A stretch of 64,000 bases of DNA, taken from positions 2,809,741 to 2,873,740 of the forward strand of contig NZ_CP110848.1 in the NCBI RefSeq assembly GCF_026240635.1, written 5' to 3'. The notes under the pieces were generated by a model. It saw nothing but the letters and a program-made list of their open reading frames with translations. It was not told the DNA's origin and ran no database searches. The first letter of the stretch is position 1. The number at the start of each line of letters is the position of its first letter. The translations under genes and the position numbers were made by a program. Shown here piece after piece: positions 46,640 through 52,285 of this stretch. This stretch comes from Trichothermofontia sichuanensis B231 (GTDB taxonomy: Bacteria > Cyanobacteriota > Cyanobacteriia > B231).

Positions 46640-47722
46640 ATGACTGTTACGTTTAGACAATACGAAACCCATAACCCCTGGGAACGCTTTTGTCGTTGGG
46701 TGACCAGCACCAACAATCGGCTCTATATTGGCTGGTTTGGGGTGCTCCTAATTCCCACCGCCCTGACAGCCGCGATCGTGTTCACGTTAGCCTTTATTGC
46801 GGCGCCGCCCGTGGATTTGGATGGCATTCGTGAACCGATCGTAGGGTCGATTCTGGGTGGCAATAACATTATTACGGCCACTGTGGTCCCTAGTTCCAAT
46901 GCGATCGGGCTACACTTTTATCCCCTCTGGGAAGCGGCCAGCCTGGATGAATGGCTGTACAATGGCGGTCCCTACCAGATGATCATTTTCCATTTTCTGA
47001 TTGCGATCTACGCGTATATGGGTCGGGAGTGGGAACTGAGCTACCGCTTAGGGATGCGGCCCTGGATTGCGGTGGCTTTCTCGGCCCCGGTAGCGGCAGC
47101 TACGGCAGTACTCGTGGTTTATCCGATCGGGCAGGGCAGCTTTTCGGATGGCCTGATGCTGGGGATTTCGGGCACTTTTAATTTCATGATTGTCTTCAGC
47201 GCTGAGCACAATATCTTGATGCATCCCTTCCACATGCTGGGGGTGATTGGCGTCTTTGGCGGTGCCCTCTTCTGTGCCATGCATGGTTCAATGGTCACTT
47301 CCACCCTGGTGCGTGAAACGAGTGAGCATGAGTCGATTAACGCCGGCTATCGTTTTGGTCAGGAGGAGGAAACCTATAATCTTGTTGCGGCCCACGGTTA
47401 TCTGGGTCGGGTCTTCTGGCAGGCGATCAGTTTCAACAATTCGCGATCGCTGCACTTTGTCCTGGCAGCATGGCCGGTGATCGGCATCTGGTTTGCGGCC
47501 CTAGGGATCAGCACCATGTCGTTCAATTTGAACGGTTTTAACTTCAACCAATCGATTCTGGATCACCAGGGGCGTCCCATTGCCACGTGGGCTGATGTGT
47601 TGAACCGGGCTAACCTGGGCATTGAAGTGATCCATGAACGCAACGCCCATCAGTTTCCTCTGGATCTTGCCAGTGGGGATACGCAGACGATCGCCTTAGG
47701 GATGCCCAGTCTGCCTGCCTAG
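46640..47722 (+). CDS. psbA: photosystem II D1 protein, low-oxygen D1' type
   Basis: A 360-residue D1 core subunit with five transmembrane helices. The start is ATG 46640; a TTG frame from 46565 adds 25 non-family residues. Tyr161, His190, His198, His215 and His272 are present, as are the Mn-cluster ligands Asp170, Glu189, His332, Glu333, Asp342 and the Ala344 processing end, followed by a 16-residue extension. The D1' diagnostic residues are Ala80, Leu158 and Ala286, with Met173 (Pro in common D1), Ala144 and Glu130. The QB pocket keeps His252, Ser264 and Phe265 but has Leu255 and Ala262 instead of Phe and Tyr. D1' proteins are known to be made under microaerobic conditions. A strong hairpin follows the stop codon, and the Crp/AAA+/ferredoxin chimera is the next gene. 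Confidence 0.96.
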
Positions 47723-47944: not shown

Positions 47945-50779
47945 ATGGGGAGCACCACCTGTACTGGCATGAAGTCAATGCCACCTCCCAACTCTTCCCA
48001 GGTCGCATCCGATCTCACCCCGAATCTCATGGCTTCAGCCAGTCCGGCGGGTGAGGGTGAATGGCTTGGGGTAAGACCGGGGGCAGGGGGGCCGCTAGGG
48101 GCTGATGTGACTTCCTTGCCACCGGCTGAGGGGCCAGCGATGCAGGCTACGGTTGATTGGTTAAGCTTCCATCGCCGGTGGGGTGTACTCTCCGATGCGA
48201 CGTTGCGGGCGCTGGCTCGATCGTTGCGGTTGCTGTCGGTAGCTGCCGGTACCCATCTTTATGAAGCAGGACAAACTCCCATCGGTCTCTATCTGGTGAA
48301 ATGGGGATCGGTGGAAATCTATCGCCAGTCGCCGGTGGGTAAAACCCATATTCTGTATCGTAACGCCGGGGATTTGTGTGGCTATATGCCCCTGTTTGCC
48401 GAACCCGCGGAACCCGGTCAGGCGGTATACGAGGCCAGCGCGATCGCGGTGACGGCGAGTGAAGTCTGGTTCCTTGATCGCCGGGATTTTGAACAATTGA
48501 TCCAGACCTATCCCGATATTCAAACGCCGATCAACCAGTTGCTCACCCAGGACCTCTACCGCTTTGCCCAGCGTCTGACCCATGAGCAAGCCCGCATTCA
48601 GGGGTTACAGTCCTATATCCAGCCGGTTCCCAGTCTGGATGCCTTCATCGGTAAAAGCAAACCTTCTCAAAAACTGGCCCAACAGATTGCAGCGGCGGCA
48701 GCAGACTTGGCCCCCGTGATCTTGCAGGCCGCCCCCGGTACGGGCAAAACCTTTGTCGCGGGGTTGATCCATCGGCGATCGGGCGTGAGTGATCATCCCT
48801 TTATTGAGGTCAACTGTGCGGCCTTACCGCGCAATGCGCTGGGACAGGTGCAGACCGAAATTTTGTTTGGTCAGCCGGCGACGGGGGAACTGGGTGTCAT
48901 CGAGCTACTGGAACGGGGGACGCTGCTGATTGATAATGTCCAGCTCCTGGCGGCAGCGGATCGCGATCGCCTTAGCCATTACCTGAAAACAGGTACCCTG
49001 ACCCCTGTTTCTGGAGGTGAGGGGAACTCAATGCCTTCGCCTCTAAGTCCGCTTGACGGCAACCGGGCGCTGACGACTTGGGTGCGGGTGATTGTGGCCA
49101 GTCCCCATGCTTTTGACTGGCCGGGAATTCGTTGCCATCACCTAAAACTCTTTAGCCTGTCCCAGCGAAAGCAGGATATTCCCGACTTTGCCCAGGCGTT
49201 TCTGACCCAGTTCTGCCGTGCGTTGGGGCACCAGCCACTGCAACTCGACCCTGCCGATATGCGGCGCTTGATTAGCTATGACTACCCCGGCAACCTGGGG
49301 GAACTGGCGGCGATTTTGCGGCGGGCAGTGATGATGACGCCCCCGGAACAGACGATCGTGCCGGAGTCGGTCCTCTGGTCAGTGCAGTCACCCAAGAATG
49401 CCTTCCGGGTGGATTTGCTTACCCAGGTGCCGTGGTTGCGTCGCTGGCTGTTGAGCCGCTGGTGGCCGGCGGGCGTTTGGTGGCTGGTGATGGCCTTGTT
49501 CATCCCGGTGACGGTACTGGGGTTTGTAGGGCCGCAAAGCCGCGACAGTAGTTTGACGCTGAACCTATTTTGGGCCTGGTGGTGGCCGTTTTATTTATTC
49601 CTATTTGCCTTTGTCGGGCGGCTGTGGTGTGCAGTCTGTCCCTTTATGATTACGGGGGAATGGTTGCGGACCCTGTCCCTGGGGATCTGGCCGCGCCAGT
49701 TAAAACCCTGGCCAACGCGCTGGCTGAATCGCTGGGGGGGCTGGGTGTTGTTTGCCGGGTTTGGGGTGATTTACCTCTGGGAGCAACTGTGGGATTTGCC
49801 CCATACGCCCTACCTTTCGTCCTGGCTGCTCCTGAGCATCACGGCGGGAGCAGTCATTTTCAGTCAGATCTATGAGCGGCGGCTCTGGTGTCGGTATTTG
49901 TGTCCGATCGGCGGCATGAATGGTCTATTTGCTAAGTTGGCGATGGTGGAGTTGCGATCGTTGCAACAGGTGTGTGGCAGTCAGTGTCAAACCTTTGGGT
50001 GTTATAGGGGCAGTGGGGCCACTCCTGTTTCCTTTGTTGACGCCCTGGCGACGGAAGGGCAAGCCACTGATGGCTGTCCCCTGTACTCCCACCCAGCCCA
50101 CCTCGCAGATAACCGGGATTGCGTCCTGTGTATGACCTGTTTGAAAGCCTGTCCGCACCGGTCGGTACAACTGAATCTGCGCTTTCCCGCCACTGATTTG
50201 CTCGAAGGACACCAGGGTTCGGGGGCCGAGGCCGCCCTCTTACTGCTGCTGCTGGGGGGCGTGTTGATGCATCATACACCGCAAATTCTGGCCTGGTTTG
50301 ATCTGGAGTTTCTGGCGATCGATGCCGATCACCTGCTGACGAGTTTACCGGTGGTCATTATCCTGCTCAGCATTCCCGCTTTGCTGATCTATGGCGTCCA
50401 TCAGCTAACCCGTGGGTACAATCGCATCGCGTTTCGGCATGAAAATCGCCTCCTGCCCGATTACACCACGATCGTCTATGCCTACTTACCCCTAACGCTG
50501 GCCGCCAACTTGGCCCACTACACCCCTGCTGCAATCACAGAAGCAGGCCAGTTCCTCCCCGTCGTTGCCCGGACCTTCGGCTTGAGTGGTGCGGGCTGGC
50601 CCACCTTGACCTGGAGCCTGGATGTGGCCCAGTTCCTGCAAGGAGTGACGTTACTGTCAGCATTGGCGTTTAGTGTCTATCCGCTGCAACGGATTACCCA
50701 GCGATCGTTCGGGTCCTACTGGCCCCACCTGGCGTTAATGCTGGTTTTGACGATCGCCTTTTTTAAGTTGATGATGTGA
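47945..50779 (+). CDS. Crp-like / AAA+ / membrane polyferredoxin chimera
   Basis: A 944-residue protein. Residues 1-65 are disordered. About 70-215 form a cyclic-nucleotide/Crp-like sensor domain (GTHLYEAGQTPIGLYLVKWGSVEIY). About 230-480 form an AAA+ domain of sigma-54-activator type, with Walker A APGTGKT (263-269) and FIEVNCAALPRN; however the GAFTGA loop is absent (ILFGQPATGELG instead) and Walker B is LLIDNVQLL, with Asn for the usual Glu. No Fis-type HTH follows. Then come about six hydrophobic helices with CAVCPF (about 561) and CRYLCPIGG (about 648), a Cys cluster (CGSQCQTFGC) and CVLCMTCLKACPHR (about 726), as in NosR/NapH-type membrane iron-sulfur proteins. ATG 47945. It follows psbA by 222 bp. 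I infer redox or oxygen sensing coupled to AAA+ activity; the target is unknown. Confidence 0.8.
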   Translation: MGSTTCTGMKSMPPPNSSQVASDLTPNLMASASPAGEGEWLGVRPGAGGPLGADVTSLPPAEGPAMQATVDWLSFHRRWGVLSDATLRALARSLRLLSVAAGTHLYEAGQTPIGLYLVKWGSVEIYRQSPVGKTHILYRNAGDLCGYMPLFAEPAEPGQAVYEASAIAVTASEVWFLDRRDFEQLIQTYPDIQTPINQLLTQDLYRFAQRLTHEQARIQGLQSYIQPVPSLDAFIGKSKPSQKLAQQIAAAAADLAPVILQAAPGTGKTFVAGLIHRRSGVSDHPFIEVNCAALPRNALGQVQTEILFGQPATGELGVIELLERGTLLIDNVQLLAAADRDRLSHYLKTGTLTPVSGGEGNSMPSPLSPLDGNRALTTWVRVIVASPHAFDWPGIRCHHLKLFSLSQRKQDIPDFAQAFLTQFCRALGHQPLQLDPADMRRLISYDYPGNLGELAAILRRAVMMTPPEQTIVPESVLWSVQSPKNAFRVDLLTQVPWLRRWLLSRWWPAGVWWLVMALFIPVTVLGFVGPQSRDSSLTLNLFWAWWWPFYLFLFAFVGRLWCAVCPFMITGEWLRTLSLGIWPRQLKPWPTRWLNRWGGWVLFAGFGVIYLWEQLWDLPHTPYLSSWLLLSITAGAVIFSQIYERRLWCRYLCPIGGMNGLFAKLAMVELRSLQQVCGSQCQTFGCYRGSGATPVSFVDALATEGQATDGCPLYSHPAHLADNRDCVLCMTCLKACPHRSVQLNLRFPATDLLEGHQGSGAEAALLLLLLGGVLMHHTPQILAWFDLEFLAIDADHLLTSLPVVIILLSIPALLIYGVHQLTRGYNRIAFRHENRLLPDYTTIVYAYLPLTLAANLAHYTPAAITEAGQFLPVVARTFGLSGAGWPTLTWSLDVAQFLQGVTLLSALAFSVYPLQRITQRSFGSYWPHLALMLVLTIAFFKLMM

Positions 50780-50803: not shown

Positions 50804-50918
50804 CGGCTCTTCTGAGATTTGGGTGTAAACAGTATAGATAACTACAAATAAATGATCTTAAATGTTGGGTTTATGGTGGGGGCGCATAGCGCTCCCACCA
50901 TAAACCCAGCAGAACCTG
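50804..50918. repeat. MITE copy 1 with internal palindrome
   Basis: CGGCTCTTCTGAGATTTG ... GGTGTAAACAGTAT ... AACTACAAATAAA ... then GGGTTTATGGTGGGGGCG/CGCTCCCACCATAAACCC. About 85% identical to 58500-58613. Its right terminal repeat is degraded (GCAGAACC). Confidence 0.85.
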
Positions 50919-51051
50919 CTAGATTAAGTTGAGCACTGACAGTCGCTCAGGCTAAATTTTATCAACTCTTGTGAACTTTTTATGTTTGGCTCGACTGCAA
51001 GGGTTCCGATCGGAATGGAAATGCGCTTTCCCGAAACCGACATTTAAAGTC

Positions 51052-51090
51052 AAAGTCGTTCAGCCAAAGTCGTTCAGCCAAAGTCGTTCA
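51052..51090. repeat. 14-bp direct tandem repeat (2.7 copies)
   Basis: AAAGTCGTTCAGCC repeated at 51052 and 51066 with a partial third unit, upstream of the small membrane-protein gene. Confidence 0.85.
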
Positions 51091-51111
51091 CACCACGATC
51101 GGAGGTGTGTG

Positions 51112-51300
51112 ATGATGCAAGAAACAAAAGTTCCCATTGTCTTTATTGGGATGTTACTCTTTTTCCCAATCCTATTCGGTGCCTTTTACTTTGTCTGGCC
51201 CATTAATCACATGGTTGCTTTCCTGATTCTATGCCTAGGACTTTCTGTCGATGTTGTCGGTGGCTGTAAACTCATTGATCAGATGTTAAGCCACACCTAA
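51112..51300 (+). CDS. small two-helix membrane protein
   Basis: A 62-residue protein with two hydrophobic helices (IVFIGMLLFFPILFGAFYFVW and MVAFLILCLGLSVDVVGG). ATG 51112 has GGAGG six nt upstream, much better than the TTG/GTG-type frame start at 50971. I do not recognise the family. It ends 13 bp before cysK, so the two may be co-transcribed. Confidence 0.7.
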   Translation: MMQETKVPIVFIGMLLFFPILFGAFYFVWPINHMVAFLILCLGLSVDVVGGCKLIDQMLSHT

Positions 51301-51313
51301 AGCCGATTGATCA

Positions 51314-52285
51314 ATGCCCATTTACAACAGTGTTACCGAACTGATCGGGCGGACGCCTTTGGTCAAACTCAGACGCTTACCGCAACTATGGGGGTGTGAG
51401 GCTGCCATCCTGCTGAAACTAGAAGGGCTGAATCCGGCCAAATCGGTAAAGGATCGCATTGCAATCAGTATGATTCTGGCGGCGGAGCAGGCCGGTCTGA
51501 TTGCCCCAGGACGATCAACCCTCATTGAGGCGACGTCGGGCAATACAGGAGTGGGGTTGGCAATGGTCTGTGCGGCCAAAGGATATCGCCTGATTTTGAC
51601 CATGCCGGATAATATGAGCCAGGAACGTCAGCAGATCCTGAGGGCCTATGGTGCGGAGTTGGTGCTGACGCCAGCGGCTGCCGATATGGCGGGGGCGATC
51701 GCCCGTGCGAATGAACTGCTGGCTTGTATTCCCGATGCCTTTTCGCCCCAACAGTTCAGTAATCCGGCCAATCCCAAAATCCACTATGACACTACAGGGC
51801 CAGAAATTTGGGCCGCCACGGAAGGGCAAGTGGCCGCTATCGTCGTCGGGGTGGGAACGGGCGGTACGCTGACAGGGGCTGGTCGCTACCTGAAGCAGCA
51901 AAACCCACAAATCCAAATCATTGCGGTGGAGCCAGCCACCAGTGCCGTCCTCAGTCACCATCCAGCAGGGCCACACAATCTTCAGGGGATTGGCGCAGGC
52001 TTCATCCCCGATGTACTGCGGGTAGATCTGATCGATGAAATCATCCCCGTCACTGATGAGCAAGCCTATAGGGTGAGTCGTCAACTGGCGAAAACTGAGG
52101 GCATCATGAGTGGGATTTCGACTGGGGCAATTCTTTACGCTGCTTTCCAAGTGGGGCAACGATCGACCTACCGAGGCCGACCTCTGGTCGCCTTCCAACC
52201 CAGTGGCGGCGAACGCTATCTCAGTACCCCACTGTTTGCCGAATCGACTTTGGCAGCCGCCACTTTGGCCCAATCCCCCCCCTAA
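51314..52285 (+). CDS. cysK: cysteine synthase A (O-acetylserine (thiol)lyase)
   Basis: A 323-residue PLP enzyme converting O-acetylserine and sulfide to cysteine. The aldimine lysine is in NPAKSVKDR (about residue 45), ATSGNTGVGLA binds substrate, the GVGTGGTLTGAGRYLK loop binds PLP phosphate, and SGISTGA holds the pyridine-binding serine. ATG 51314. It lies 13 bp after the two-helix membrane gene and 5 bp before the FGGY kinase gene. Confidence 0.95.
   Translation: MPIYNSVTELIGRTPLVKLRRLPQLWGCEAAILLKLEGLNPAKSVKDRIAISMILAAEQAGLIAPGRSTLIEATSGNTGVGLAMVCAAKGYRLILTMPDNMSQERQQILRAYGAELVLTPAAADMAGAIARANELLACIPDAFSPQQFSNPANPKIHYDTTGPEIWAATEGQVAAIVVGVGTGGTLTGAGRYLKQQNPQIQIIAVEPATSAVLSHHPAGPHNLQGIGAGFIPDVLRVDLIDEIIPVTDEQAYRVSRQLAKTEGIMSGISTGAILYAAFQVGQRSTYRGRPLVAFQPSGGERYLSTPLFAESTLAAATLAQSPP

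What the first reader, a model, noticed from the sequence alone, without database searches (positions are those of the whole stretch)
47945..50779. Crp-like/AAA+/NosR-type polyferredoxin chimera without sigma-54 loop or HTH
Seen: a Crp-like sensor, an AAA+ domain of the sigma-54-activator type, then a multi-helix membrane region with several CxxxCP-type clusters, all in one frame. The AAA+ part lacks GAFTGA, has LLIDN at Walker B, and no Fis-type DNA-binding domain follows. Known: cyanobacteria have no sigma-54. Inference: the usual name 'sigma-54-dependent regulator' would be wrong, and the module may couple redox or oxygen state to an ATPase-driven action at the membrane.
Basis: partly seen in the sequence, partly recalled or inferred. 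Interest (0 to 1): 0.85.

Follow-up and report, generated by a model that had tools for sequence, protein, structure and literature searches.

The report
Sulfide-linked FesM-like membrane iron-sulfur protein
A cyanobacterial gene that looks like a gene switch is most likely a membrane electron carrier, a second kind of the known photosynthesis protein FesM, whose relatives sit beside genes for living with hydrogen sulfide and little oxygen, so it may be an overlooked part of photosynthesis that runs without splitting water.

Summary
One 944-codon frame joins a Crp-like domain, an NtrC-type AAA+ domain and a membrane domain with 12 cysteines. Relatives from over 100 cyanobacteria carry the same fusion in one frame, so it is neither a chimera nor an assembly error. 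[quoted passage not shown] FesM belongs to widespread clade B; the window protein belongs to a separate clade A (39% identity).

Two things appear new. First, the AAA+ domain is a pseudo-ATPase. GAFTGA, the catalytic Walker B Glu and the arginine finger are absent from all 94 proteins checked. Clade A keeps the ATP-binding P-loop and clade B has lost it. The "ATPase-driven" reading is therefore unlikely.

Second, clade A lies in mobile sulfide/low-oxygen islands, some on plasmids. cysK follows it in 18 of 20 loci (clade B: 0 of 61). Type I sulfide:quinone reductase occurs in 25 of 28 carrier genomes (p=1e-11), often nearby. The psbA beside the window gene is a microaerobic-type D1.

Best reading: a FesM paralogue that moves electrons between ferredoxin and plastoquinone when photosystem II is down-regulated. 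Identity is firm; mechanism is inferred.

The parts
47945..50779 (+). FesM-like protein, clade A ('FesM-A'), 944 aa as the longest frame; likely true start 48140 (879 aa)
48236..48511 (+). Crp-like (cNMP_binding fold) domain; the ligand-binding Arg/Ser pair of the phosphate-binding cassette is not conserved
48647..49369 (+). NtrC-type AAA+ domain with lid; P-loop GTGKT kept, Walker B Glu replaced by Asn, no GAFTGA, no arginine finger, sensor II Arg lost: pseudo-ATPase
49469..49870 (+). TM helices 1-4, NapH/NosR-like core; Cys562/565 just after TM2
49628..50152 (+). 12 invariant cysteines (562,565,649,653,677,681,686,711,726,729,732,736): enough for three [4Fe-4S] clusters on the cytosolic side
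50222..50773 (+). five further TM helices in place of a DNA-binding domain, with conserved His776 and mostly conserved His858
46640..47722 (+). psbA coding a microaerobic-type D1 (A80, L158, A286; all Mn ligands kept), the only such copy among four psbA genes of the genome
51112..51300 (+). 62-aa two-TM ORF with good ribosome-binding site; relatives lie in two other clade A islands
51314..52285 (+). cysteine synthase A (cysK), the conserved downstream neighbour of clade A

Best explanation
The gene encodes a paralogue of FesM. Shown: a cytosolic Crp-like domain and an NtrC-type AAA+ domain that lacks the residues for hydrolysis are fused to a NapH/NosR-like membrane polyferredoxin with ligands for three [4Fe-4S] clusters; the electron-transfer core is the most conserved part; the clade is genetically tied to cysK and to sulfide/low-oxygen photosynthesis genes. 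Inferred: the clusters pass electrons between the soluble ferredoxin pool reduced by photosystem I and the plastoquinone pool, in line with FesM's role in cyclic flow. This would keep ATP-forming cyclic or sulfide-fed electron flow running when sulfide or low oxygen has down-regulated photosystem II (alternative D1) and SQR feeds plastoquinone. CysK and other neighbours would remove excess sulfide. The Crp-like and AAA+ domains would gate this flow; in clade A the AAA+ part could bind ATP without hydrolysing it and so read ATP supply (speculative).
For: Same domain order as FesM. The Picosynechococcus genome G163 (97% DNA identity to a stretch of plasmid pAQ7 of the FesM strain PCC 7002) holds exactly one full-length protein of this type, in clade B. 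A-versus-B identity is 58% (TM1-4) and 64% (FeS loop) but only 25% (Crp-like) and 30% (AAA+); 12 Cys are invariant in both clades. cysK lies within 1.5 kb in 18/20 A loci and 0/61 B loci. In 232 genomes type I SQR occurs in 25 of 28 A-carriers versus 47 of 204 others, p=1e-11 (genus level 18/18 versus 29/101). A islands carry SQR, petC, arsR, persulfide-dioxygenase-like, TauE, alternative psbA, also on plasmids. Every full-length island D1 has A80/L158/A286, and several lack Mn ligands. This genome also has type I SQR.
Against: No biochemistry or expression data for any clade A protein were found. The FesM paper is not in the held library; its domain description is from memory, and only its cyclic-flow role and glycerol phenotype were seen second-hand. 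In this window only psbA, the gene and cysK are together; SQR is ~1 Mb away, psbA is 222 nt upstream and cysK 535 nt downstream, so co-transcription is unproven. Some A carriers lack SQR or cysK nearby. The FeS loop is poorly modelled (pLDDT under 50) and the membrane domain has no match in the PDB. Gene linkage may reflect shared mobile islands rather than joint function.
Confidence: 0.5

Rival explanations
1. It is a membrane redox or sulfide sensor, not an electron carrier: the Fe-S clusters sense oxygen, sulfide or quinone state and the Crp/AAA+ part relays the signal to an unknown partner that controls psbA, cysK or sqr.
For: Sensor-type domains are present and under purifying selection (AAA+ omega 0.05-0.26); psbA and cysK flank it in the window.
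Against: No HTH or other output domain in any homologue. The sensor-like domains are the least conserved between clades, the electron-transfer core the most. Many islands carry their own ArsR-type regulator.
Confidence: 0.25
2. It supplies electrons for sulfur assimilation, for example reduction of polysulfide, thiosulfate or sulfite to sulfide, which the neighbouring cysteine synthase then fixes.
For: cysK is by far the most constant neighbour (18/20 within 1.5 kb; 37/50 loci), more constant than SQR or psbA.
Against: No catalytic sulfur reductase subunit is a constant neighbour. The other neighbours (SQR, persulfide dioxygenase-like, TauE, ArsR) fit sulfide oxidation or removal, where cysK can act as a sink.
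Confidence: 0.15
3. It is simply another FesM, with the ordinary function, carried along on sulfide islands and with no special link to sulfide.
For: The electron-transfer core is 58-64% identical to clade B; G000 has no clade B copy, so the clade A protein could stand in for it.
Against: Several genomes keep both A and B (G005, G006, G038, G041). A is a separate clade (97/91 support) with a different AAA+ active site and a specific cysK link.
Confidence: 0.1

Closest known systems
FesM (Synechococcus/Picosynechococcus sp. PCC 7002; Xu, Liu and Zhao 2005, doi 10.1104/pp.105.061549)
   Same: Crp-like + NtrC-like + membrane + 4Fe-4S architecture in one chain (domain description from memory; the Picosynechococcus homologue L171 read here shows it); same 12 cysteines.
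   Different: Separate clade (window protein 39% identical to L171); P-loop retained where clade B has GEPGLxKD; Walker B D-N or similar versus NN in most of clade B; linked to cysK and sulfide genes, which clade B loci are not.
NapH/MauN quinol-dehydrogenase ferredoxin subunits and NosR
   Same: Four TM helices with twin cytosolic CP-type cluster motifs followed by a ferredoxin motif; best weak NCBIfam match of the C-terminal domain is NapH (7e-8).
   Different: Far below family cut-offs (32 versus 213 bits); one strict ferredoxin motif; five extra TM helices; N-terminal Crp and AAA+ domains; no NosR FMN-binding domain detected.
sigma-54 activators (NtrC, PspF, LuxO)
   Same: AAA+ fold and lid; Foldseek best hits include NtrC1, PspF, LuxO.
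   Different: No GAFTGA, no Walker B Glu, no arginine finger, no HTH, no sigma-54 in the organism.
Cyanobacterial sqr/alternative-psbA islands (Grim and Dick 2016, PMC5061849)
   Same: sqr near group 2/3 psbA and arsR, as found here around clade A.
   Different: A text search of that paper finds no cysteine synthase; FesM was not discussed in the passages read.

Membership tests
FesM | Crp-like domain + NtrC-like AAA+ + membrane [4Fe-4S] domain in one chain | tested here: met
   the FesM definition itself is from memory of its abstract
FesM | falls in the same clade as the Picosynechococcus protein | tested here: not met
   A and B are separate, 97/91 support; L171 is 63-65% identical to clade B, 39% to the window protein
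[quoted passage not shown]
   needs a knockout and P700 kinetics
sigma-54-dependent activator | GAFTGA loop | tested here: not met
   0 of 94 family members
sigma-54-dependent activator | Walker B Asp-Glu and arginine finger | tested here: not met
   0 of 94; Asn/Gln at the Glu position in all 19 aligned clade A proteins
sigma-54-dependent activator | C-terminal Fis-type HTH | tested here: not met
   membrane domain follows
sigma-54-dependent activator | sigma-54 in the genome | tested here: not met
   PF04552 0 of 39 over cut-off; control positive in 4 named genomes
Crp/Fnr transcription factor | cNMP-binding fold | tested here: met
   Pfam 5e-16; PDB hits to Cmr and CAP
Crp/Fnr transcription factor | conserved Arg-Ser/Thr of the cNMP phosphate-binding cassette | tested here: not met
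   Tyr in clade A, Thr/Ala in clade B at the aligned Arg position (alignment by eye)
Crp/Fnr transcription factor | C-terminal HTH | tested here: not met
NapH/NosR-type polyferredoxin | twin CP-type cysteine motifs after paired TM helices plus ferredoxin motif | tested here: met
NapH/NosR-type polyferredoxin | score over the NCBIfam NapH or NosR cut-off | tested here: not met
   32 versus 213 bits; 22 versus 1000 bits
NapH/NosR-type polyferredoxin | shared solved fold of the membrane domain | tested here: inconclusive
   no Foldseek match under E 0.001; best VIA Z 5.8, unrelated
Active AAA+ ATPase | Walker A able to bind ATP | tested here: met
   GKT in 19/19 clade A; lost in clade B; sequence test only, binding itself not measured
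Active AAA+ ATPase | catalytic Glu | tested here: not met

The most novel reading that the evidence does not exclude
Clade A is a dedicated, unrecognised electron-transfer component of sulfide-tolerant or anoxygenic photosynthesis in cyanobacteria, carried on mobile islands with alternative D1, alternative Rieske protein, SQR and cysteine synthase, and gated by an ATP-binding but non-hydrolysing AAA+ domain that reads ATP supply.
Probability: 0.3. Interest if true: 0.82.

Novelty: new variant of a known kind. Interest (0 to 1): 0.6.

Why it matters
How cyanobacteria switch between water-splitting and sulfide-fed photosynthesis is an open question, and SQR is the main component usually named. 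A second candidate that travels with alternative D1, petC and cysK gives a concrete gene to knock out. The result also warns that annotations such as 'sigma-54-interacting regulator' or 'nitrogen assimilation regulatory protein' (the name given to the Aulosira plasmid copy) mislead for a whole family, and it indicates that the NtrC-like domain of FesM is a conserved pseudo-ATPase, which bears on how FesM is controlled.

Tried and rejected
Two genes joined by error: rejected, the fusion is in one frame throughout the family; split frames occur only in a few draft assemblies (L012, L017, L019). Decaying AAA+ domain: rejected, omega 0.05-0.26 and clade-wide replacements such as NN and GEPGLxKD. 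psbA as a constant neighbour: only 8 of 50 A loci, so it is a recurrent island partner rather than an operon rule. Type II (human-like) SQR as partner: not associated (0 of 10 A carriers versus 6 of 49). Neighbourhood of clade B: no conserved partner found. Structure search of the membrane domain: no usable match. The FesM paper: not held. D1' marker residues G80A/F158L/T286A: literature checks did not show them; they are from memory of Sicora et al. 2009. One of the 20 clade A rows (L083) was a mis-extracted fragment and counts as a gap.

Full report
Observation. The frame 47945-50779 is open for 944 codons. Pfam supports a Crp-like domain, a sigma-54-activator-type AAA+ domain with its lid, and a Fer4_5 membrane iron-sulfur domain. 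There is no HTH. The first-stage description is accurate except that the first motif is CxxCP. The likely start is ATG 48140, which has a Shine-Dalgarno-like GAGGGG.

Family. A scan of GTDB genomes gave 112 loci encoding relatives (80 kept), all kept ones from cyanobacteria. Two clades are evident: A (about 60% identity, including the window) and B (about 40%). The tree separates them with 97/91 support on a long branch. In 59 sampled genomes 43 have some match and several carry both clades; in 232 genomes 28 have clade A at a strict threshold. Variants without the Crp domain (L112-L114) and with a duplicated AAA+ domain (L110, L111) exist in clade B.

Known identity. From memory, FesM of Synechococcus sp. 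PCC 7002 (Xu, Liu and Zhao 2005) was described as a membrane iron-sulfur protein with a cAMP-binding domain, an NtrC-like domain and a 4Fe-4S motif. The paper is not held; a citing paper confirms its role in photosystem I cyclic electron transfer and the glycerol phenotype (PMC9003380). To place it, DNA of plasmid pAQ7 of PCC 7002 was matched at 97% identity to genome G163, which has exactly one full-length protein of this type, in clade B. So FesM is clade B by inference, and the window gene is a paralogue.

AAA+ domain. In 94 proteins GAFTGA, the Walker B Asp-Glu and the arginine-finger motif are absent. Clade A keeps GKT in the P-loop but has Asn or Gln in place of the catalytic Glu. The 62 aligned clade B proteins have GEPGL(E/G/D)KD and Asn-Asn. 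Selection on the domain is purifying. The fold is that of NtrC1/PspF/LuxO. It is a conserved pseudo-ATPase, possibly ATP-binding in clade A. The Crp-like domain lacks the usual cNMP-binding Arg/Ser. The organism has no detectable sigma-54.

Membrane domain. AlphaFold gives four helices, an Fe-S loop of low confidence, then five helices. Twelve cysteines are invariant in both clades, and charge bias puts the loop on the cytosolic side. NCBIfam's nearest families are NapH and NosR, well under cut-off. No solved structure matches. The core is the most conserved part between clades, which points to electron transfer as the shared function.

Context. cysK lies within 1.5 kb downstream in 18 of 20 clade A loci and in none of 61 clade B loci. 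Many A loci lie in islands with type I SQR (PDB match 3e-93), arsR, petC, a persulfide-dioxygenase-like protein, TauE, ACR3, HemN, heme oxygenase, cytochrome bd and psbA (several of these names are by eye from the sequence, SQR, cysK, the dioxygenase-like and rhodanese proteins were checked). Two are on plasmids, of Aulosira laxa NIES-50 and Pseudanabaena galeata. Type I SQR co-occurs with clade A (25/28 versus 47/204, p=1e-11). The genome samples are phylogenetically uneven, so the genus-level count (18/18 versus 29/101) is the safer figure. Some loci are the same genome twice (for example L013 and L161). Grim and Dick 2016 had noted sqr next to group 2/3 psbA (PMC5061849); a text search of that paper finds no cysteine synthase.

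Window. psbA 46640-47722 encodes a D1 with A80, L158 and A286, whereas the other three psbA copies have G80, F158 and T286. The three changes are, from memory, the marks of microaerobic D1'. It keeps all Mn ligands, as do L092 and L149; L093, L147, L148 and L152 lack several and resemble 'rogue' D1. SQR of this genome is about 1 Mb away, beside homologues of two other island genes.

Mechanism. Shown: architecture, invariant cluster ligands, absence of catalytic AAA+ residues, gene linkage and co-occurrence. Inferred: electron transfer between ferredoxin and plastoquinone while photosystem II is down-regulated by sulfide or low oxygen; gating by the cytosolic domains. Rivals are a sensor role, electron supply for sulfur assimilation, and an ordinary FesM function.

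Verdict. Ordinary in architecture (FesM), new in clade, context and in the pseudo-ATPase finding: a new variant of a known kind, interest 0.6.

Noticed in passing
window 51112-51300: 62-aa two-TM ORF with good ribosome-binding site; 34-39% identical ORFs in islands L093 (10768-10944) and L018 (20364-20549, next to a second cysK fragment).
   Followed up: partly
window 50866-50908: Long near-perfect hairpin (TGGGTTTATGGTGGGGGCGC / GCTCCCACCATAAACCCA) between the gene and cysK.
   Followed up: no
window 51045-51092: Short direct repeats (AAAGTCGTTCAGCC) just upstream of the small ORF.
   Followed up: no
L110, L111: Clade B variant of about 1121 aa with two AAA+ copies in tandem; the first copy reads GEAGVGKVN and VLDHLQD.
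   Followed up: partly
L112, L113, L114: Clade B proteins without the Crp-like domain.
   Followed up: partly
L094 4851-6206: Stand-alone homologue of the membrane Fe-S domain in Deinococcus ficus, without Crp or AAA+ (27% identity).
   Followed up: no
L147, L148: Alternative D1 proteins beside clade A with Glu170, Asp189, Ala264 and Ala333, so probably unable to evolve oxygen.
   Followed up: partly
L006 4278-6802: HdrA/HdrC/HdrB-like genes in a cyanobacterial sulfide island (Cyanothece sp. BG0011); named by eye from the sequence.
   Followed up: no
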